DNA of 62,437 nucleotides from a virus. Below, in pieces: positions 21,872 through 60,135 of the stretch. The position numbers and the translations under genes are program-made. Below the pieces are notes generated by a model. That model was given only the letters and a program-made list of their open reading frames with translations. It ran no database searches and was not told the origin of the DNA. Every line of letters begins with the position of its first letter. Within the stretch, counting starts at the first letter, position 1. The DNA is taken from positions 1 through 62,437 of the IMG/VR virus record IMGVR_UViG_3300021425_000035; one strand, given 5' to 3'.

Positions 21872-24800
21872 TTATACGTCAAAGGTGTTTACGTTGTAGA
21901 GAATTCTATCCGTTCCGAATATAAAGTAGTTGATGATAAAATCTCCAACTATACCATTTTCTCCTGTATCAGTATTTAGCCAAGCATTCTTAATAGAATA
22001 CCATCTATTACCACCAGAAGAACCAATTCTTTCCAGTCCTTTTATAACTGTACCTGCTGTGTTAGCAGTGGAAACATAAATGAATCCAGAAACACCCAAA
22101 TTAGCAGTTAAAACATTTTCACTAAGTCTTCCAATTCTTAGCAATCCTTGATTAGTATCTAATTCGGAAAGACTGGGGGTATAAGTAAAGTTTACTCCGT
22201 TCTCTAAATTGTAAACAAAATTTCCTCCCGATAAAGCACCAGCATCATAGTTACCAACATCATCCACATAAATCTGCCATGTTGTTGGAGCGGGAGATCC
22301 AGTTAATTTATTGGCATATGCCCATTGAAATAATGCTTGTGGCGTTACAAATACATCGTCAATAGATTGTGCTGCTGGACCCCAGTTTTGAGATGGAGAA
22401 ACTTTTTTGGAGAAACCATATTTATCCTCGGTTGCAACTGGAAATCTATACAACGTATTTGGTTGTGCCACTTGAGAATCTTTTAGTTCGAGGCTGGCAC
22501 CATCTCTTATTTTGAGAACGTTAGAAACCTCAATATCAGCAACGGTTACCTTATCGTAAGTAACTGTCTTCGAAGACGCTTCTGCTAATTGAATACGTGC
22601 AGATGACTGTAAGATAGTAGAGAATGCCTCTAGGTTTCCAACGCCACTACTAGAAGCAGCAGTAATATATAGATAATCATCTGGGTTTATTAGTCTAGTT
22701 TGAGCACTTGTTTTTAATTTAGGTGTATTAACTGTTTCTGATTGACTACCTTTGGTATCAATAATTTGGGCACCAATGAAGAAGTCTCCATTGGAGTTAG
22801 TTCCACTAGATCCGTTAAATCCACCGTCAATTTCCTGTGTCTGAGCATTGATAGTTTGCTGCTTGTTAAGAACGATAGTTTGGAATGCAGGGAAACCAGT
22901 TGAGTAGTTACCTGGGCCAAATCCAACATATTCCCAGGTATGTCCAGATGCTCTAATATTACTTGGTCTGTGTAGTTTGACTGCAATTGGTGCCAATCCA
23001 TTTTGATCTTCAAACAATAACATTCTATTACTATATGCAGATCCGTCATTTCTAGTTGTTTCATTTACGACAGTAAAATTATCAAAAAGATCATCATCAA
23101 TACCAATATCGTTTTGTATATTAGATCCACCAACTTTCTTGTAAGGTTCGTTTGATTTGAAATTAATTCTTTTTAATTTTACACCAATCAATGATCCGTC
23201 TCCAGCACTAATTATATTTCCACCTGTTAGTTTTTTAAATGTTATTTGATTAGTTGATGAAGAAGAAATTCTATAAAAAGTGTTTGTATCAATAATAGAA
23301 GAAGATCCAGCGGAGCAGAATTTTATAATATCATCAACAGCTAGATTATTAGTTCCGCTAGTTAAAGTTACTGTTGATCCAACATTACTTCCAATTGTAT
23401 AAAGAGAAACACCAGAATTGATATTAATACCAGATTGTAGATATGTAACAAAAGTTTCTATAGTTTCTGCTGTAGTAGAATATTCCGATCTTCTACTATA
23501 TCCATCCGCTTGTAAGTTAGAAGCATCTACTGTAACGGTCTTGATTGTTGGTGTGGTGTCATAAACACTGTATGATTTTTTAGGGTTCCATTCTGGTTTA
23601 TCGAGGTTTATATCTGGGTATAAGAAATATTGATTTTGAGAATATCCAATTGGAAGCTGATCTGTGGAATTTAAAATATTTTTTACATTGGCATCACCAA
23701 CTGTCAGTAAATAATAACCATCTTGCTGATTATATTGATATTCGATTTGAGTTTCTACGTCATAAATGTAATAACTATTTTCATAATAAGGAGCTTGATC
23801 AAGTTCTAATTTTATGACGTATTTTCTTTCAGGCGGTTTTGCTATTTGATTTTTTGGTATTTTGTAAAGAACTCTCCAAGTATGATCTTTTTGTAGACGA
23901 TTATCTGGTGTCCTCTTAGCATATAAACTTGGGAATGTAGAATTTCCACTAAACTCTCTGGCATCTATTGTATTCAATGCATAATCCGTATTTGAATCAT
24001 AACGCATTGTAATTCTCTTGAGAAGAGTATTTTCCGTAGTGGAATCAATTGGAGTTGCCCCTCCAAAATCAGCATTTGTTTGAGTTGCGGCAAATGATGC
24101 AGCATCTACAAATTCAAAGTAGCTTCCATCTGCAGCTTGTCCCCAATAGAATACATCAGATTCTAAAACAGAATCCATAATGTAAATAACAACATGTCCG
24201 TAATATACTGTGCCTTGCGTCTCAGAATACTCCCAACCATAATATTGTCTAGTATCATTTTCTGGAACTGTAAAGATTGTATTATCTGATGTAGTTTGAT
24301 TTACCTCAGCATCAATGCAAGTTTGACCGTCTTCATTGACAGCTCCTTTTAATCTTAGCCTTGCCTTAAATTCTTTTTGAACTGCAGATCCAATAAAAGT
24401 CGGGAATGAAGTGTATACATATTCATCAAAGTCACTTCCCGTTTCGTAAGTTTCTGTGATTGGATCAAATTTAATATTCTTTCCTTTACCTAAAAGATAA
24501 TTAATACCATCAAGTAATAACCAACGCTTTTCTTGGGGAGTTCCTTTGTTTTCAATGTATTCTGGAACTTCATCTTTACCAAACAATCCATATGGGTTAT
24601 TTGGATTCTTGACGTAGATTTTACTAATTTTAGGTCTGTTTGCTACTTCAGCATTTTGCCAAGCAGAAAATGTTCTTTGATCGATTTCGCCAATACCAAC
24701 TGGTTGTGTGTTTATATAATTGATTCCTCGTGGTGGGACTACTCCAATCAACTGTCCAGTTGAATCTTGATTAAACGCATCTCTTTTATATCCAGAACTT

Positions 24801-49931: not shown

Positions 49932-51725
49932 CTACTCGGGATAAGCAGTGAACTTACTAGTGGTCATATCAACATCTAGGAAAACCTCTCGTAGAGCATT
50001 GATATCATTGCTCAATGGCTTTACTCTTAATTCAATTCGGTTGTCTTCAAAAGAACCACGAATGATCGTTAAATCATTCAACATTATTTCACCTTTTGTA
50101 TAATTTATTTCTCCAAGGGAGTCATTTAGAACTATTTTTAGTCCAGTTAAATCATCTATTCTATATAGGACGATTATACCATCCCTATCTTCCAAATACA
50201 CGGTATATTCAGGAAATTCAGTAACTGTAAACCCAGTTGATTGTAGTGTTGGACCATTGCATTCTTTATCAAAAGCATTTTGGAAACAAACCTCATAGTA
50301 AAAGCTTGAATTGATGGCAGGATAAAAATCTTTCCTCAACATTACTGTAGTTTGATTAGAATTGATTGATCTGTCTGCATCATCAATCACACCAATAAAT
50401 TTACTATATCTAAATTTACCAGTAAACTTTTCAGTATCTGATTGATCAATATATTGTTGAATTCCTGTTCTTACTTTCTTTACAATCTCAGCTGGAGGTA
50501 AATTTGTCTTGGTCCTATCATAATAAATTTTACTTGTCAATTCTACAAATAAAATTGATGGATCAATGATATCAACAGTAACTGATCCAACCATATATGG
50601 TTGTAATCTTCTTACAATGTCTTGTTTAGTGAATGAAGAAAGTAGGTTTGTATTAGATGGTTTAATTACTACCTTAACTTTGCCATATTCTGGTGGATCT
50701 GCGTCTTGACCACCAAAGGTAATAATATCAGCAACCGCTGGATAAACGTTCCTAACGATGGCTGCATAGTCCTGTGCGGTCACTGCACGATCTTGTGTGC
50801 CGAAATACCTAGGCGCATTGTATTTAATTTTATCGATGCTTTCAATGTTCTCTCCACCAGATGCTGGAGTTACTGAATTGACAACAACATTTAATGGATA
50901 AACCGCATTGTTTCTATCATCAACAATACCATTGAATACAAATGTCTTGGCACCATTAGTATCAGGACCATTGGTTACTAGATAAGTAACCTCAATAAAC
51001 TGACCACTCTCTAGTTTCTTACCTAATACACCATCACCAAAGAAAAGCTCGTAGTTCTCGTCTTCAACTTCATTTAAAAAATATGTCTTAGTTTCTGAAT
51101 TTACATCAAGAATATTATCTGCTCTTTCGTAAAATTCAAAAGCAGATGAATTTTGGGATGGATATACTTTTACTCTAATACTACTCGTATCAACGCCTTG
51201 ATTCTGAATCAAAAAACGTTGAGATTTGAGTGCTGTATTAACAGTATAAGAATTTTTAATTAATGATCCTTCATAAATCGGAACATCAACAAAAGATGCT
51301 GTTCCATTCTCTACTGCAGCAGAAACATCATCTAATGTGGTATATTGATATAGTTCTGAATCAAAAATCGTAGTAAATGCAGATCCAGTTCTTAAAATAG
51401 CAACATCAGGAGTTGTATTAATAAAATTAACGTCAAAATTAATGTAAGCAACAGGTGAAGTAACTGACTTCGGTGTATATCCTAATTGCTTGGCAATTGC
51501 AACAACATTATCTCTCAGGGTTGCTGAATCTAAAAATAACTCGTTGACAACTAGATTGGTGTTGAATGCCGTATAATACGTATTATACGCCAATACATCA
51601 AGTAATGTGCTCCATACAGAACCTTCAAAATCATAATCAGTAAAATCTGACTGTGATCTTAAATATTCCTTCAGTGCAATCTTAATATCATTATAATCTA
51701 AATTTGATACTTGTGTGTATGGCAT
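49932..51725 (-). CDS. 6: Baseplate wedge protein gp6
   Basis: 597 aa, close to T4 gp6 (660 aa). The N-terminal region (YNDIKIALKEYLRSQSDFTD, GSVWSTLLDVLAYNTYYTAF, LRDNVVAIAKQLGYTPKS) is diagnostic of gp6/baseplate J-type wedge proteins in cyanophages. FFGDGVLGKKLESGQFIEV and AVTAQDYAAIVRNVYPAVAD further support the assignment. In T4, gp6 dimers form the iris ring joining wedges around the central hub. The stop of gp25 directly abuts the gp6 start, so the two are co-transcribed and probably coupled. Confidence 0.92.
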   Translation of the reverse strand: MPYTQVSNLDYNDIKIALKEYLRSQSDFTDYDFEGSVWSTLLDVLAYNTYYTAFNTNLVVNELFLDSATLRDNVVAIAKQLGYTPKSVTSPVAYINFDVNFINTTPDVAILRTGSAFTTIFDSELYQYTTLDDVSAAVENGTASFVDVPIYEGSLIKNSYTVNTALKSQRFLIQNQGVDTSSIRVKVYPSQNSSAFEFYERADNILDVNSETKTYFLNEVEDENYELFFGDGVLGKKLESGQFIEVTYLVTNGPDTNGAKTFVFNGIVDDRNNAVYPLNVVVNSVTPASGGENIESIDKIKYNAPRYFGTQDRAVTAQDYAAIVRNVYPAVADIITFGGQDADPPEYGKVKVVIKPSNTNLLSSFTKQDIVRRLQPYMVGSVTVDIIDPSILFVELTSKIYYDRTKTNLPPAEIVKKVRTGIQQYIDQSDTEKFTGKFRYSKFIGVIDDADRSINSNQTTVMLRKDFYPAINSSFYYEVCFQNAFDKECNGPTLQSTGFTVTEFPEYTVYLEDRDGIIVLYRIDDLTGLKIVLNDSLGEINYTKGEIMLNDLTIIRGSFEDNRIELRVKPLSNDINALREVFLDVDMTTSKFTAYPE

Positions 51726-52127
51726 TTATCGAGTTCTCTCTAAAAAGAATTCTACGTTGAGTGGAATATCGTCTCTACCTATAATCTCAAATTCCAATCC
51801 AACATCAAATCCATTATCATCAAAATTTGGTATAACTTCTAACGATATAATATTAATTCTAGGTTCGTAATCTGTTAATACGTTTTTAATCTCAGATTGG
51901 ACCAAGGCTGCTACACCATAATCTAATTGTTCAAATAGTAATCTAGGAATGTCAGACCCAATCTGAGAATTGAATAAACGTTCACCTTTGTTTGTTAACA
52001 AAAGATTAACGATAGCCTGTTTGACAGCAGCCTCATCCTTACTAGTAATTAAATCACCAGTAATTGGATGAGGCTTGAATGTAACATTTAAATCTTTAAA
52101 TGTTTGAAACTGTGGCACAGTAGACAA
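51726..52127 (-). CDS. 25: Baseplate wedge protein gp25 (lysozyme-like fold), TTG start
   Basis: 133 aa, matching T4 gp25 (132 aa). FQTFKDLNVTFKPHPITGD, KDEAAVKQAIVNLLLTNKGE and RLFNSQIGSDIPRLLFEQ are the hallmarks of the GPW/gp25 family, a lysozyme-like fold lacking lysozyme activity that joins sheath and baseplate. The only start giving the expected N-terminus is TTG at 52127; a GTG three codons later is an alternative. No clear Shine-Dalgarno is seen. A perfect late box CTATAAATA lies 14-22 nt upstream, which predicts a nearly leaderless transcript. It abuts gp6. Confidence 0.9.
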   Translation of the reverse strand: MSTVPQFQTFKDLNVTFKPHPITGDLITSKDEAAVKQAIVNLLLTNKGERLFNSQIGSDIPRLLFEQLDYGVAALVQSEIKNVLTDYEPRINIISLEVIPNFDDNGFDVGLEFEIIGRDDIPLNVEFFLERTR

Positions 52128-53455: not shown

Positions 53456-53880
53456 GGGCTCTGGGAAACGTTTATAGCTTAGAAAGAAGGTACTTTTTTG
53501 GGGGACGCTTATCGTTAATTATAATTAACGAACGATTACGATTAACTGTTAATTATAATACCTTTGCAATCGTAATTACTGTGTTATTCTAATTACTTTA
53601 CAATCGTATTTAATTGTTGTTAATAATAACAAATACATTTATTTACTGTTAATTAGAATTAACAACTAATTGTAATTACAAAGTATTTGTATTATTGTGT
53701 AATTTTATTTGTATAGTATTACTAATACACTGGTAATTATCAAAGTATTAGTAATATTGAATAATTGTGATTAGTTGCTAATTTTAATTACTGTGTAATC
53801 TATGTGTATTTGTATTTGTATACTTTCCTACATTTATTTGATTGTATAAAGAATAGCTAACTGTAAAAAAAGAGAAATAA
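53456..53880. other. AT-rich, dyad-rich noncoding tract
   Basis: No convincing gene in about 425 bp. Holds the 18-bp palindrome cgttaattataattaacg (53513-53530), a near-palindrome gttaattagaattaac (53648-53663), a 12-bp inverted repeat (53717-53728 / 53745-53756) and degenerate repeats around ACGATTGYAAAG. It separates the late cluster from the GC-rich island. Could be an origin, a transcription barrier or an insertion-prone spacer. Confidence 0.6.
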
Positions 53881-53924: not shown

Positions 53925-54206
53925 TCAATATCCGCCCTCTTCGATATACTTTAGGTCTCCTACTTTCCTGCCCTTTGCTATCACCGAACCGAGGGAGAAT
54001 CCAAGGAGATCGGGAGATTTAATAATTTCAGTAAGATATACTTTATAGCGATTTGTGGCTTCGAAAAGATATGCTTTCTCGTGGTTCGATTGGAATATGA
54101 TTTCGACGAAATTACCGTCGATCTCGATGTTGTGAATTGCGCTAGATTCGTCTACAGTGAACGTCCGATAGATGGGGGCGTTTGTGATTTCGAAGGAAAC
54201 AGACAT
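53925..54206 (-). CDS. KTSC-like small protein (93 aa)
   Basis: 93 aa; FTVDESSAIHNIEIDGNFVE, then IIFQSNHEKAYLFEA and LLGFSLGSVIAKGR. The 'SSAI..I..DG..VEI.F.S....Y.F' core resembles the KTSC fold (weak pattern match). The gene is moderately AT-rich but stands at the left edge of the GC-rich island, directly downstream of its last GC hairpin (54232-54251). A terminator (53885-53903) follows. Function unknown. Confidence 0.6.
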   Translation of the reverse strand: MSVSFEITNAPIYRTFTVDESSAIHNIEIDGNFVEIIFQSNHEKAYLFEATNRYKVYLTEIIKSPDLLGFSLGSVIAKGRKVGDLKYIEEGGY

Positions 54207-54231
54207 TTCGAGAAAAGTGTAGAGAATGGGT

Positions 54232-54251
54232 GGGGGGCTGTGGTGCCCCCC
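54232..54251 (-). terminator. GC hairpin after 98-aa gene
   Basis: GGGGGGC...GCCCCCC perfect 7-bp stem, 6-nt loop, no T tract. Left-most hairpin of the GC-rich island. Confidence 0.55.
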
Positions 54252-54272
54252 GTTGCTCGCTATCCTAGCAGA

Positions 54273-54569
54273 TCACAGGGCGCTGTTGCGATTCTGTGCC
54301 CACATGGCGAGGCGCTTGGTGCTAGCCTTGCTGAACACCCGATCGGTCTGGGTGATCGTGCCATCGGCATGGGTGACACGGTGACGGTTGGCAGCCTTGG
54401 CACACGCCTGCAGGGCACGGCGACCCTGGCGATCGGTCTGGGCAAGGTTCAGCAGGAGGGTGGCACGGTGCCCACCGATCACACGGGGGCGCTCGATCAG
54501 CAGACGGGCAGCGGTTTCGGCGTCACCGATCAGGGCAGCGAAACGGCTGGAGGGGATGATGGGGAGCAT
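54273..54569 (-). CDS. GC-rich hypothetical protein (98 aa)
   Basis: 98 aa, mostly Ala/Arg/Leu: SRFAALIGDAETAARLLIER, GGHRATLLLNLAQTDRQGRR, ACAKAANRHRVTHADGT. Helical and basic; no family recognised. GC-rich codons (GCC, ACC, CGC) contrast with the AT-rich phage backbone, pointing to foreign origin. Upstream is a candidate promoter TCGACA-16-TAGGAT (54618-54645), and downstream a 7-bp GC hairpin (54232-54251), so it looks like a one-gene transcription unit. Confidence 0.6.
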   Translation of the reverse strand: MLPIIPSSRFAALIGDAETAARLLIERPRVIGGHRATLLLNLAQTDRQGRRALQACAKAANRHRVTHADGTITQTDRVFSKASTKRLAMWAQNRNSAL

Positions 54570-54617
54570 CGGTCTGGGGCGGGGGGTGGTGGAGGTCTGT
54601 CCCCCTCGCTTGAACGT

Positions 54618-54645
54618 ATCCTATCAGATCGGTGGGGGGTGTCGA
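54618..54645 (-). promoter_or_regulatory. Candidate promoter TCGACA-16-TAGGAT (divergent module copy A)
   Basis: -35 TCGACA (54640-54645) and -10 TAGGAT (54618-54623), upstream of the 98-aa gene. A weak GGGG/CCCC hairpin lies just upstream at 54651-54677. Degenerate relative of the island module. Confidence 0.45.
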
Positions 54646-54820
54646 GGGTCTGGGGTCGAAATCGGGACAGTGCCCCAGGTGGCACACGGGGTCGGGGTCG
54701 CTGGCAGTGGGGGGCGCTCGCCGTGCTAGATTGGAGGTAGACCCTATGGTTGTTGCCTATGGGTTGGCAGGGGCGGTGGCGACGGTTGGCGTCTGCAGAG
54801 CTACCCCGCTCCTCGATCGG

Positions 54821-54866
54821 TTGTCTCTGGAATCCTAGCACAGAAAAGGGGGGCGGTGTGCCCCCC
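54821..54866 (-). promoter_or_regulatory. Degenerate hairpin-promoter module (copy B)
   Basis: TAGGATTCCAGAGACAACC (-10 at 54832-54837) directly after the GC hairpin with T tract. The -35 position reads CACACC, so the promoter is weak or decayed. No start codon follows for over 200 nt, so it has no obvious gene. Confidence 0.4.
54848..54866 (-). terminator. GC hairpin terminator after 61-aa gene
   Basis: GGGGGGC...GCCCCCC 7-bp stem followed by TTTTCTG on the minus strand; the only island hairpin with a T tract. Confidence 0.75.
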
Positions 54867-54874
54867 TGGTGGGG

Positions 54875-55060
54875 TCAGATCAGGTGATCTGCCAGATCCC
54901 AGCGGTGGATCGTGAAGCCAGGGTGGCGACGCTGGCAGGTGGCGAGAGCCTCAGCAGCGGTTGCTGCCCGAACGGAGATCACCTCGGGGAAGGGGTGGCA
55001 GTTGCCTTCCTGAACGCCGATGAACAGGAAGTGGCAGGAGCGGTCGGTAGCGATGTCCAT
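54875..55060 (-). CDS. GC-rich small hypothetical protein (61 aa)
   Basis: 61 aa: MDIATDRSCHFLFIGVQEGN then FPEVISVRAATAAEALATCQ and RRHPGFTIHRWDLADHLI. The 'I.V.A.TA.EAL..C.' segment is reminiscent of small phage proteins with a beta-alpha-beta fold, but no family is claimed. It has its own repeated promoter module (55088-55117) and is followed by a GC hairpin with a T tract (54848-54866). No Shine-Dalgarno precedes the ATG; the leader is the repeated GTCAACCACAGACACC sequence. Confidence 0.65.
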   Translation of the reverse strand: MDIATDRSCHFLFIGVQEGNCHPFPEVISVRAATAAEALATCQRRHPGFTIHRWDLADHLI

Positions 55061-55072
55061 GGTCGGGTGTCT

Positions 55073-55117
55073 GTGGTTGACTCTGGAATTCTATCATGGG
55101 AGGGGGGCTCTTGTGAA
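55073..55117 (-). promoter_or_regulatory. Island module copy C: TTCACA-18-TAGAAT plus leader
   Basis: -35 TTCACA (55112-55117) in the hairpin loop region, -10 TAGAAT (55088-55093), then the shared leader TCCAGAGTCAACCAC. Drives the 61-aa gene. Confidence 0.65.
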
Positions 55118-55126
55118 CCCCCCCCC
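55102..55126 (-). terminator. GC hairpin after 82-aa gene
   Basis: Six G pairing with a run of nine C across a loop that holds TTCACA; no T tract. Part of module C. Confidence 0.5.
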
Positions 55127-55134
55127 AGGTGGGG

Positions 55135-55383
55135 TCAGGGGCTGGGGTCGTACCCGTCCAGGATAGCCTCTACGATCTGCTCGTGAGTTTGCTGGCAGAG
55201 AATGCCTGCGATTGCGATCTCTTCAGCCCATTCCCAGGTGCCACCAGTGAGGAAGTCCAAGGGGAGAATGTAGGGGTACATCTTGTTAAACAGATCCTCG
55301 ATCTTACCCAGTTCATTGTAGAGATCCAAGGGGATCTCCCAGGCTTCGTCGATCTGCACGGTGTCGGTGAAGGCGTAGGTCAT
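55135..55383 (-). CDS. Acidic hypothetical protein (82 aa)
   Basis: 82 aa and acidic: MTYAFTDTVQIDEAWEIPLD, then LYNELGKIEDLFNKMYPYIL and EWAEEIAIAGILCQQTHEQI. Likely helical; no recognised domain. It is a single-gene unit with the repeated promoter module upstream (TTGCCA-18-TAGAAT, 55409-55438) and the next module's hairpin downstream. The ATG sits about 20 nt from the predicted transcription start with no strong Shine-Dalgarno. Confidence 0.65.
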   Translation of the reverse strand: MTYAFTDTVQIDEAWEIPLDLYNELGKIEDLFNKMYPYILPLDFLTGGTWEWAEEIAIAGILCQQTHEQIVEAILDGYDPSP

Positions 55384-55393
55384 GGGTGCCTGT

Positions 55394-55438
55394 GTGGTTG
55401 ACTCTGGAATTCTACAGGGTGGTGGGGGGTCTTGGCAA
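55394..55438 (-). promoter_or_regulatory. Island module copy D: TTGCCA-18-TAGAAT plus leader
   Basis: -35 TTGCCA (55433-55438) lies in the loop and first stem base of hairpin 55424-55444; -10 TAGAAT at 55409-55414; shared leader follows. Drives the 82-aa gene. Confidence 0.7.
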
Positions 55439-55444
55439 CCCCCC
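55424..55444 (-). terminator. GC hairpin after 56-aa gene
   Basis: GGGGGGT...ACCCCCC 7-bp stem with 7-nt loop; carries the -35 of module D. Confidence 0.55.
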
Positions 55445-55452
55445 TGGCTGGA

Positions 55453-55623
55453 TCAGTGCCGATCGCTCACGTTCCAGGTGGTGGTGGGGGCATTGGCAGG
55501 GAAGGGGAAGGGGCGACCCTCCTGGAATGCCTTACGGTTGGCAGCGGATCGTGCCTGCATTTGATCGTAGCGGGCGGTGTAGTCTGCCATGATGGCTGCG
55601 AGGTCGATCTTGGGGTTGGTCAT
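55453..55623 (-). CDS. Small hypothetical protein (56 aa)
   Basis: ATG at 55623 directly after the repeated leader. The protein is MTNPKIDLAAIMADYTARYD then QMQARSAANRKAFQEGRPFP and a FPANAPTTTWNVSDRH tail. Short helix plus proline-rich tail; no family recognised. It lies between two copies of the repeated hairpin-promoter module (55409-55444 downstream and 55648-55682 upstream) with no room for another gene, which supports it as the coding content of that cassette. Confidence 0.6.
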   Translation of the reverse strand: MTNPKIDLAAIMADYTARYDQMQARSAANRKAFQEGRPFPFPANAPTTTWNVSDRH

Positions 55624-55632
55624 GGTGCCTGT

Positions 55633-55676
55633 GTGGTTGACTCTGGAATTCTACAGGATGGGGGGCTGGTTGGCAA
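55633..55676 (-). promoter_or_regulatory. Island module copy E: TTGCCA-17-TAGAAT plus leader
   Basis: -35 TTGCCA (55671-55676) in the loop of the hairpin near 55660-55682; -10 TAGAAT at 55648-55653, ideal 17-bp spacing. Drives the 56-aa gene. Confidence 0.7.
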
Positions 55677-55682
55677 CCCCCC
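55660..55682 (-). terminator. GC hairpin after 81-aa gene
   Basis: GGGGGG...CCCCCC stem with inner GGTT/AACC pairing; carries the -35 of module E. Confidence 0.5.
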
Positions 55683-55691
55683 CAGGTTGGG

Positions 55692-55937
55692 TCAGACGGC
55701 GACCCAGTAGGTGTTCACGCACACATTAGGAACTGCCTTACCGATCTCTCGCATCTCCGCCATGATCCACTGATCCTGTGGGCGAGCAGATCGCCAACCC
55801 ATCACCTGGAAGTAGCAGTCCTCCAGGGTGGCGGGGTAGGCAACGGTGCTGACGATCCTACCGTTCCGAACCATCGCCACAGCGAACGGGTAGCGTGTGG
55901 GGGACAGGATGGTCTTGAGTGGGGTGGGGTCGGTCAT
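55692..55937 (-). CDS. GC-rich hypothetical protein (81 aa)
   Basis: 81 aa: RYPFAVAMVRNGRIVSTVAY then ATLEDCYFQVMGWRSARPQD and QWIMAEMREIGKAVPNVCV. A strand-helix pattern with no known motif. The same cassette layout as its neighbours: promoter TTGGCA-18-TAGAAT at 55966-55995 upstream, GC hairpin downstream. Start ATG at 55937, reached by the short conserved leader. Confidence 0.65.
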   Translation of the reverse strand: MTDPTPLKTILSPTRYPFAVAMVRNGRIVSTVAYPATLEDCYFQVMGWRSARPQDQWIMAEMREIGKAVPNVCVNTYWVAV

Positions 55938-55950
55938 CTGTCGGGTGTCT

Positions 55951-55995
55951 GTGGTTGACTCTGGAATTCTACAGCCAGTGGGGGGCTGTTGCCAA
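55951..55995 (-). promoter_or_regulatory. Island module copy F: TTGGCA-18-TAGAAT plus leader
   Basis: -35 TTGGCA (55990-55995) in the loop of hairpin 55980-56001; -10 TAGAAT at 55966-55971. Drives the 81-aa gene. Confidence 0.7.
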
Positions 55996-56001
55996 CCCCC
56001 C
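55980..56001 (-). terminator. GC hairpin after GP88-family gene
   Basis: GGGGGG...CCCCCC stem, loop carries TTGGCA (-35 of module F). Confidence 0.55.
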
Positions 56002-56014
56002 TGGTGTGCAGTGC

Positions 56015-56767
56015 TCAGACCGTCACAGCTTGGCTGGTGGTCGCCTTGCGATAGCCTCCGAACTGCCCAGCCTGGCGACGCTGGCGAATCGCCTTGCCCC
56101 AGTCGCTACCCTTGGGCTGGGTGCCATGCACTAGCAGGGCGAAGGGACGATCACCAAAGCAGTGGCTGTCGTCGTGATCAACCTCTAGCCCCAGGGCGTT
56201 AGCATCATCATCCGTCATCACCACTTTACTATAACGGGGGAACATTCCATCGTCGATCATGTAATCGAACTTACCACCATAGCTTGCCGTCATGTAGAAG
56301 TTAGAGGGCAATTCTTGAGTGATAAAGAATTCGAGAGATTTGCTGTAGCAGTAGAACTTAAGGTTAGGGTTCATCTGTGCAACTTTAACCCACGCTTGCA
56401 GATAGGCGAGGCTGAAGAAGTCGCCCGACTCGTGTATACGAACCAGCTTGGTATTGCGTGTCTTAAAGTGGTTCAACGCAACGCTAATCTGTTCAGCAGC
56501 GTGATCAATACCCACCTGCAGGTATTCCACAACAGTAGCCAGGTTGTTGGCTCGGTTGTAGAATGCTCCATCGTATTGCACCTCAGACGATGCAGCAAAG
56601 CATCGGAATTGCGTGTGCTCGGTGTCTTGAATAGAACGCTTGCCGTTAGCATCAACAACAGCGAAAGACTTACAGAAAAGGGCACCAGGGCAGGTCTTGC
56701 CTGCAGGCAGGTTGAAAATCAGGGTGCTGGTGCCCAGCTTGGCGTTGCCTTTGGAGAAGGTGAGCAT
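56015..56767 (-). CDS. GP88-family phage protein (250 aa)
   Basis: The pattern GNAKLGTSTLIFNLPAGKTC then PGALFC (C26, C32), RCFAAS (C56), RIHESGDFFSLAYLQAW and LKFYCYSKSLEFF matches the GP88 family named after mycobacteriophage gene 88, whose function is unknown. The three conserved cysteines may bind a metal or cluster (inference). I chose ATG 56767 over the longer frame to 56854 because the longer version would read through the repeated promoter and hairpin. Promoter TTGCAA-17-TAGAAT lies at 56793-56821. GC content is between the island and the backbone. Confidence 0.8.
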   Translation of the reverse strand: MLTFSKGNAKLGTSTLIFNLPAGKTCPGALFCKSFAVVDANGKRSIQDTEHTQFRCFAASSEVQYDGAFYNRANNLATVVEYLQVGIDHAAEQISVALNHFKTRNTKLVRIHESGDFFSLAYLQAWVKVAQMNPNLKFYCYSKSLEFFITQELPSNFYMTASYGGKFDYMIDDGMFPRYSKVVMTDDDANALGLEVDHDDSHCFGDRPFALLVHGTQPKGSDWGKAIRQRRQAGQFGGYRKATTSQAVTV

Positions 56768-56777
56768 GGCTCTGTCT

Positions 56778-56821
56778 GTGGTTGACTCTGGAATTCTACA
56801 GGATAGGTTGGCGGGTTGCAA
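56778..56821 (-). promoter_or_regulatory. Island module copy G: TTGCAA-17-TAGAAT plus leader
   Basis: -35 TTGCAA (56816-56821) abuts hairpin 56822-56843; -10 TAGAAT at 56793-56798. Drives the GP88-family gene and forms the right end of the module series. Confidence 0.7.
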
Positions 56822-56843
56822 GGGGCAGGATGGACACTGCCCC
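56822..56843 (-). terminator. GC hairpin after 63-aa gene
   Basis: GGGGCAG...CTGCCCC perfect 7-bp stem, 8-nt loop; directly abuts the -35 of module G. Confidence 0.6.
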
Positions 56844-56855
56844 GATTGGCACACC

Positions 56856-57047
56856 CTATAGTTCTACATTCCAGTGGCGATCGTTTGGTATAGTAACCCA
56901 AAAGAAGTTGCGACCATTGAGTGAACCAAGGTGAACACTATTGCCTTCGATTTTATCCACAATACATTCAGGATTGTGGTCCATAAGATTAGCAAACCTA
57001 TTCTTGGCTTTGCTAGATTTAGGTGCGACAAATGCTTTGGGTTTCAT
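56856..57047 (-). CDS. Small hypothetical protein (63 aa)
   Basis: 63 aa: MKPKAFVAPKSSKAKNRFAN, then LMDHNPECIVDKIEGNSVHL and GRNFFWVTIPNDRHWNVEL. Looks like a small beta protein with a basic head; unknown. Start chosen at ATG 57047 because an extended -10 promoter (TGCTATACT, 57071-57079) ends about 24 nt upstream, which excludes the longer frame starting at 57086. Terminated by the GC hairpin 56822-56843 that belongs to the island's first module. Confidence 0.65.
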   Translation of the reverse strand: MKPKAFVAPKSSKAKNRFANLMDHNPECIVDKIEGNSVHLGSLNGRNFFWVTIPNDRHWNVEL

Positions 57048-57107: not shown

Positions 57108-57129
57108 GTGCCACTAAAAGAAGTGGCAC
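57108..57129 (-). terminator. Hairpin after 59-aa gene, no T tract
   Basis: GTGCCACT...AGTGGCAC perfect 8-bp stem with 6-nt loop, 8 bp past the stop. May be a processing or stabilising structure rather than a terminator. Confidence 0.5.
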
Positions 57130-57136
57130 ACACTAA

Positions 57137-59508: not shown

Positions 59509-60135
59509 TTATTTCCAACGTGGACCAAGAACCCAACCTACGAGAGATTTTCTTGTACCTGATTTAACTTTAGTTACTCTATGAGGTAGAGTAGAATCAA
59601 AGATGATCAAGCTACCAAGATGTTGTTCAACAGACCAGGAGGAGTTATGGTTATGGAATTGTAGTTCTCCTCCTGTGAAATCATCTGATAGGAGAAGAGA
59701 GAAAGATAATTTACGAACTAGGTTAGATGATTGGATTTCTTCTCTTGTTGGTATATGATGATTAGAACTATAAGCACGATCAATAGTAACTACGAAGGGG
59801 GATTGCAGTTCAGAATCTACATGCCAACCATAGAAATCATTTTGATTATAGATGGTATATTGGAGATTATCTTCATCAAAGTCAACAAGATCATACATGA
59901 AGTTATGTCTATTAATTTTTTGAATGTATGTCATAATGAAGGAAGAGATCCATGAATCACATTTAATCCATTTATGAGTAGATGATCTAATGTCAGCATC
60001 TTTAGTTAAGACACCAGATTGATCATTAATTTGTGATAGGATGATGGATGATACGTAGGATTCACAGGTGGAGATAATTTCTTCTGTGATTAACTTAGGA
60101 AGTTCTGTGTGGTAATAGTAGGAGGAATAAGCCAT
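59509..60135 (-). CDS. 2-oxoglutarate/Fe(II)-dependent oxygenase (208 aa)
   Basis: A double-stranded beta-helix dioxygenase pattern is visible: H105 and D107 in YGWHVDSE, LLLSDDFTGGELQF (147-160), distal H185 in LPHRVTKV and 2OG-binding R195 in SGTRKSLVGW. Together these make the HxD...H...R triad-plus-Arg of the prolyl-4-hydroxylase type. Such oxygenases are common accessory genes in T4-like cyanophages; the target may be a protein or nucleic acid (unknown). It is the last gene of a coupled operon: its ATG overlaps the TAA of the 70-aa gene (TAATG). The noncoding tract 58962-59508 follows. Confidence 0.88.
   Translation of the reverse strand: MAYSSYYYHTELPKLITEEIISTCESYVSSIILSQINDQSGVLTKDADIRSSTHKWIKCDSWISSFIMTYIQKINRHNFMYDLVDFDEDNLQYTIYNQNDFYGWHVDSELQSPFVVTIDRAYSSNHHIPTREEIQSSNLVRKLSFSLLLSDDFTGGELQFHNHNSSWSVEQHLGSLIIFDSTLPHRVTKVKSGTRKSLVGWVLGPRWK

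What the first reader, a model, noticed from the sequence alone, without database searches (positions are those of the whole stretch)
54215..56870. GC-rich island built from repeated single-gene cassettes
Base composition jumps abruptly (by eye well over half GC against roughly a third around it). Within it, small genes alternate with a repeated block: GC hairpin, then TAGAATTCCAGAGTCAAC and a short leader. Five copies (C-G) are nearly identical and two (A, B) are decayed. This looks like a set of mobile promoter-gene-terminator cassettes, comparable to PeSL elements known from T4-type phages, but carrying GC-rich cargo as if from a Synechococcus-like source.
Basis: partly seen in the sequence, partly recalled or inferred. 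Interest (0 to 1): 0.85.

Follow-up and report, generated by a model that had tools for sequence, protein, structure and literature searches.

The report
Shuffled single-gene cassettes in cyanophage island
A virus of photosynthetic bacteria carries a patch of small genes, each with its own near-identical start-and-stop signal, and comparison with related viruses shows that genes are swapped in and out at those signals, much as in a mechanism known from relatives of phage T4 that one earlier study judged unlikely in a related virus.

Summary
The window is a 62-kb fragment of a T4-like cyanophage. Between gp25 and a 2OG-oxygenase gene lies a GC-rich island (about 60% GC against about 33%) with six small genes. 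Five of them are preceded by exact copies of TAGAATTCCAGAGTCAACCAC.

Each copy sits in a compact module: a GC hairpin (probably the end of the previous gene's transcript), a sigma-70-type promoter whose -35 box lies in or beside that hairpin, and a short conserved leader. The same design, with other hairpins and alleles, occurs 288 times in 74 related records, almost always on the gene strand.

Module cores resemble each other more within a genome than between genomes. Among related phages, gene content and order change, and exchange breakpoints fall inside modules more often than expected (15 of 44 against 3.5).

Best explanation: PeSL-like composite terminator-promoter modules that make single-gene cassettes exchangeable. 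The T4 PeSL promoter sequence is not shared, promoter activity is untested, and recombination is inferred. A recent import from Synechococcus is not supported: high GC persists despite long divergence. New variant of a known kind.

The parts
54207..56858 (-). GC-rich island of six single-gene cassettes with their modules
56771..56858 (-). Module 1: hairpin about 56822-56843, -35 TTGCAA 56816-56821, -10 TAGAAT 56793-56798, leader to the ATG of the GP88 gene
56015..56767 (-). Gene F02, GP88 family (PF17338), 250 aa
55938..56014 (-). Module 2: hairpin, -35 TTGGCA 55990-55995, -10 TAGAAT 55966-55971, leader
55692..55937 (-). Gene F17, 81 aa, no relative found among the islands compared
55624..55691 (-). 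Module 3: hairpin, -35 TTGCCA 55671-55676, -10 TAGAAT 55648-55653, leader
55453..55623 (-). Gene F01, 56 aa, C-terminal motif WNVSDRH; relatives in S-PM2, S-RIM32, S-CAM9
55384..55452 (-). Module 4: hairpin, -35 TTGCCA 55433-55438, -10 TAGAAT 55409-55414, leader
55135..55383 (-). Gene F04, 82 aa, relatives in at least seven IMG/VR contigs
55061..55134 (-). Module 5: hairpin, -35 TTCACA 55112-55117, -10 TAGAAT 55088-55093, leader
54875..55060 (-). Gene F18, 61 aa, no relative found among the islands compared
54820..54867 (-). Terminator-like hairpin with T run (54847-54867) followed by the diverged module core TAGGATTCCAGAGACAAC (54820-54837)
54570..54650 (-). Promoter of another type (TCGACA-16-TAGGAT, 54618-54645) and leader of the next gene, conserved in relatives
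54273..54569 (-). Gene MLP, 98 aa, present in ten related contigs and Sf-FR1
54207..54272 (-). Hairpin and diverged promoter region before gene F03 (53925-54206), conserved in relatives

Best explanation
The island is an array of single-gene transcription units in a known hypervariable spot of T4-like cyanophages (between gp46 and gp25). Each unit is bounded by a roughly 70-nt composite module: a GC hairpin that ends or protects the upstream transcript, a host-type sigma-70 promoter, and a conserved short leader that runs to the ATG. In this phage the -35 box lies in the hairpin or directly after it. Because modules share a short sequence, a gene with its downstream hairpin can be inserted, deleted or replaced at modules without losing regulation, and module cores are homogenised within each genome. 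Shown here: the architecture and its statistics, shuffled gene order, enrichment of exchange breakpoints in modules, within-genome homogenisation. Inferred: that the modules start and stop transcription, that expression is early and by host RNA polymerase, that homologous recombination by phage enzymes does the shuffling, and that the genes serve host takeover.
For: Five sigma-70-like promoters, one per module (9 hits found, shuffles 1.9 +/- 1.3). Upstream 45 nt fold better than coding controls (mean z -1.25 against -0.27, p 4e-8) although hairpin sequences differ. 288 distinct modules in 74 records, 194:7 and 94:1 on gene strand against opposite strand. Copies are confined to one region of the genome: 7 of 7 in 2.5 kb of S-PM2. 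Gene order and content shuffled. Breakpoints in modules 15 of 44 against 3.5 +/- 1.8, with explicit examples L001/L003, Sf-FR1/L130 and L023/L029. Cores more alike within than between records for unrelated genes. L067 has five near-identical hairpin-promoter modules before five different genes.
Against: No transcript data. Hairpins mostly lack a T run. TATACT-type modules of relatives mostly lack a -35 box. Breakpoints fall equally in hairpin and core halves, and some of the 44 share a record, so selection against broken genes could give part of the signal. The T4 early promoter consensus is not met.
Confidence: 0.75

Rival explanations
1. The modules are ordinary promoters kept alike by selection for one regulator or polymerase. 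Genes come and go by illegitimate recombination, and junctions look modular only because recombinants that break a gene are lost.
For: Breakpoints are spread over the whole module. Conserved -10 and leader across very distant phages shows selection on the promoter itself.
Against: Identical cores are about ten times commoner within a record than between records even for unrelated genes, which a shared function alone does not predict unless each phage has its own regulator specificity. Junctions such as L001 join the hairpin and -10 of one module to the leader of another.
Confidence: 0.2
2. The island is a recent import of GC-rich genes from a Synechococcus-like host or from a phage of a GC-rich host.
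For: GC and GC3 far above the rest of the phage.
Against: Fourfold sites diverged 24-46% between relatives with GC4 kept at 0.48-0.78; comparable GC-rich small-gene island in S-PM2; no relative of the one family tested in genome contigs.
Confidence: 0.05
3. The island is an assembly artefact, a chimera or a collapsed repeat.
For: The window is a metagenome record; near-identical repeats can mis-assemble, and read coverage was not available.
Against: Comparable arrays in the independently sequenced isolate S-PM2 and a smaller one in Sf-FR1, and the same locus in many separate assemblies with both flanks.
Confidence: 0.03

Closest known systems
PeSLs (promoter-early stem-loops) of T4-like phages (Arbiol 2010, Comeau 2014; known to me through citations in PMC4503421 and PMC5348500 and from memory, full texts not held)
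   Same: Composite stem-loop and promoter between small genes of a hypervariable region, many copies per genome, at borders of gene exchange between relatives.
   Different: Promoter does not match the T4 early consensus (GTTTAC -35); in this phage the -35 box overlaps the hairpin; a conserved transcript start (AGTCAACC or CAGTTCA) is present; found in cyanophages.
S-PM2 ORFanage (Puxty 2015, PMC4503421)
   Same: Cluster of small orphan genes with shuffled order in a T4-like cyanophage; PeSLs were considered there.
   Different: It is another region (5.8-15.3 kb), where the authors found PeSL-like elements too sparse; the modules found here lie at 22.07-24.60 kb of S-PM2.
Small-gene hot spot between gp46 and gp25 of Synechococcus myoviruses (Sullivan 2010, PMC3037559)
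   Same: Same locus, same kind of small unknown genes.
   Different: The passages read do not describe a repeated terminator-promoter module; only passages found by keyword were read.
Promoter and inverted-repeat motif of haloarchaeal myovirus HGTV-1 (reviewed in PMC3950731)
   Same: Repeated promoter and inverted-repeat motif before most genes of a region, compared by its authors with PeSLs.
   Different: Archaeal virus and promoter type; no sequence comparison made here.

Membership tests
PeSL elements of T4-like phages | Stem-loop combined with a promoter in the gap between two genes | tested here: met
PeSL elements of T4-like phages | Many similar copies per genome, dense in a hypervariable region | tested here: met
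PeSL elements of T4-like phages | Located at borders of gene gain, loss or exchange between relatives | tested here: met
   15 of 44 breakpoints against 3.5 expected
PeSL elements of T4-like phages | Promoter of the T4 early type (-35 GTTTAC, A-rich upstream element) | tested here: not met
   -35 boxes TTGGCA, TTGCCA, TTCACA, TTGCAA and GC-rich upstream DNA against the consensus in PMC1524935
PeSL elements of T4-like phages | Early transcription from the element | not testable with these tools
   No transcript data
PeSL elements of T4-like phages | Homologous recombination between copies as the cause of exchange | tested here: inconclusive
   Junctions lie in modules but equally in hairpin and core
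Sigma-70 promoter | -35 and -10 hexamers 16-18 nt apart, better than shuffles | tested here: met
   for the five modules of the window
Intrinsic terminator | GC-rich hairpin followed by a T run | tested here: not met
   Hairpins present but a T run only at 54847-54867
Integron-type gene cassettes | attC sites and a tyrosine recombinase of the IntI type | not tested
   No dedicated search was made and the whole genome is not held

The most novel reading that the evidence does not exclude
Many aquatic cyanophages run a recombinase-free cassette array: a genome-specific promoter/leader core is kept identical across unrelated genes by recombination, so that an incoming gene with its hairpin is captured into a regulated slot. 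In part of these phages the promoter overlaps the preceding hairpin, which may couple the end of one transcript to the start of the next, and the conserved AGTCAACC/CAGTTCA transcript start is a signal read by a still unknown factor.
Probability: 0.25. Interest if true: 0.75.

Novelty: new variant of a known kind. Interest (0 to 1): 0.6.

Why it matters
Cyanophages hold large numbers of unexplained small genes, and how these are gained and lost is an open question. The one paper found that considered PeSLs in a cyanophage judged them unlikely for its region. Finding dense modules in another region of that same isolate, and in dozens of environmental relatives, gives a testable mechanism for gene turnover. 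It also supplies a search signature (-10, fixed gap, AGTCAACC or CAGTTCA, ATG) that can find overlooked or misannotated small genes, and candidate natural promoters for laboratory work in Synechococcus.

Tried and rejected
Known RNA family in the island: none. tRNA genes in the window: none. Structured RNA in the conserved segment within 54570-54874: no compensatory changes and an unfavourable covariation term. Coding origin of an antisense ORF there: frame open in five relatives but no third-position bias, left open. Host origin: no exact module in genome contigs, no MLP relative found (pattern-based, one family only). Function of cassette proteins: only GP88 matched Pfam above its cutoff; NCBIfam and PADLOC gave only weak hits; the MLP model is of low confidence (pLDDT 59), so no fold search was made. 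The two PeSL papers could not be read. Promoter boxes as a general feature: a -35 box is clear in the window but not in most TATACT-type modules.

Full report
What the window is. The window is a whole 62,437-base virus record. Its long genes are tail and baseplate genes in T4-like cyanophage order, with gp25 at 51726-52127 and gp6 at 49932-51725 by position and comparison with S-PM2, and a 2OG-Fe(II) oxygenase at 59509-60135. The isolates S-PM2, S-RIM32, Sf-FR1 and S-CAM9 have clusters of small genes at the same place next to gp25. Sullivan et al. [quoted passage not shown]

The observation. GC jumps to about 60%. Six minus-strand genes fill the island. Five exact copies of a 21-mer lie before five of them. 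The consensus scan finds all five as sigma-70-like promoters, with -35 boxes TTGGCA, TTGCCA, TTGCCA, TTCACA and TTGCAA 17-18 nt from TAGAAT; nine hits were found on both strands where shuffles give 1.9 +/- 1.3. By position, in modules 2-5 the -35 box sits within the preceding GC hairpin, and in module 1 directly after it. So what looked like 'terminator, then promoter' is in this phage an overlapping arrangement. The hairpins lack the T run of a textbook terminator, with one exception at 54847-54867.

How general it is. Exact matches and a short leader pattern bring in other contigs with the same design. Anchoring on the GP88 gene gave 80 loci. Over all loci I count 288 distinct modules in 74 records, in two spacings, TAnnnT-N5-AGTC and TAnnnT-N5-CAGTTC, with the ATG mostly 28-34 nt from the start of the -10. 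The opposite strand gives 7 and 1 matches where the gene strand gives 194 and 94. In whole records the copies are largely confined to one region: 7 of 7 within about 2.5 kb of S-PM2, 4 in the island of a 190-kb contig, 12 of 13 within 10 kb of a 141-kb contig. Syn9, P-SSM2, S-CRM01, Syn19, S-SSM7, S-SM2, S-RSM4, DSL-LC02, B23 and T4 show 0-3 matches each, about the level of the reversed-pattern control. The module is thus typical of a subset of cyanophages.

What is repeated and what is not. Among modules of the window and nine close relatives, the 18-nt core is more alike within a genome (0.861) than between genomes for the same gene family (0.831) or for different genes (0.793), p=0.0005. 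The 40 nt upstream, which hold the hairpin, show no genome effect (0.576 against 0.566, p=0.19) but follow the gene (0.683). With 180 and 86 modules, restricted to unrelated downstream genes, identical cores are about ten and seven times commoner within a record than between records (12.3% against 1.3%; 15.5% against 2.1%; p=0.001). The hairpin is therefore kept as a structure and the core is homogenised. The extreme case is L067, with five near-identical hairpin-promoter modules before five different genes, one of them encoding a pentapeptide-like repeat protein.

Shuffling. In eight contigs (L022, partial, L033, L034, L035, L039, L040, L045, L048) the island runs F02-F04-(optional F08, F09, F12, F10)-F01-MLP-F03. 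The window runs F02-F17-F01-F04-F18-MLP-F03, with two genes not found elsewhere and F01/F04 in the other order. The same gene carries different core alleles in different phages and the same core precedes different genes. Between aligned stretches at least 88% identical, 15 of 44 gain, loss or replacement breakpoints fall in a module, against 3.5 +/- 1.8 when breakpoints are shifted at random nearby. In L001 against L003, cassettes are missing and the remaining module joins the hairpin and -10 of one L003 module to the leader of another. In Sf-FR1 against L130 and in L023 against L029, the stretch from one module to the next is replaced. Limits: some rows share a record, one event is counted twice (L023/L029 and L028/L029), and breakpoints lie in hairpin and core halves about equally (7 and 8). 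The data show that modules are exchange borders, not that homology between them drives the crossover.

Why GC-rich. Island genes and the adjoining F03 keep GC4 of 0.48-0.78 while gp25 and gp6 of the same contigs have 0.20-0.23; fourfold sites have diverged 24-46% in the former and 58-59% in the latter. So the composition is an enduring state, not a fresh import. The intergenic DNA is as GC-rich as the genes, so codon choice alone does not explain it. Selection for host-like composition in early genes, GC-biased conversion at a recombination hot spot, or steady exchange within a GC-rich gene pool remain possible; none was tested.

Relation to known systems. PeSLs of T4-like phages are composite promoter-terminator elements said to mediate gene shuffling; I know them from citations and memory, the papers not being held. 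Composite structure, multiple copies and position at exchange borders are met here; the T4-type promoter sequence (PMC1524935) is not. I therefore say it works like a PeSL and do not file it as one. Puxty et al. 2015 considered PeSLs for the S-PM2 ORFanage at 5.8-15.3 kb and found them too sparse; the dense modules found here lie elsewhere in S-PM2, at 22.07-24.60 kb.

Verdict. A real, non-random, widespread design, and a new variant of a known kind. The sequence evidence for modular exchange is good; transcription and mechanism are inferred.

Noticed in passing
window 54570-54874 (-); antisense ORF 54746-54838 (+): A 305-nt stretch without a minus-strand cassette gene is 92% identical to L039. 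Part of it holds a 30-codon plus-strand ORF with a GGAGGT-like ribosome site, open in five relatives but without third-position bias; no covariation support for a structured RNA.
   Followed up: partly
window 55453-55623 and F01 genes of L034, L035, L039, L045, L048, S-PM2, Sf-FR1: Small proteins with different N-termini share a C-terminal motif W-x-[IV]-S-D-R-[HD] just before the stop codon.
   Followed up: no
L050 23768-23974 (S-PM2p074): The gene annotated on the minus strand overlaps a plus-strand ORF starting near 23789 that has a module before it; probably misannotated.
   Followed up: no
window 53480-53860; L045 7579-7701; L048 6920-7097: AT-rich imperfect repeats spaced about 34 or 62 nt stand beside the GC-rich island in several phages.
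   Followed up: no
intergenic gaps of many islands, e.g. window 57108-57135, L048 4008-4036: A short palindrome of the form TGTGCCA-N-TGGCACA recurs after stop codons, often followed by CTGTCC.
   Followed up: no
F04 genes of L039, L034, L035 (alignment A4): L039 F04 matches L035 over most of its length but ends in PTPDIMPIGEMF like L034, which suggests exchange inside the gene as well.
   Followed up: no
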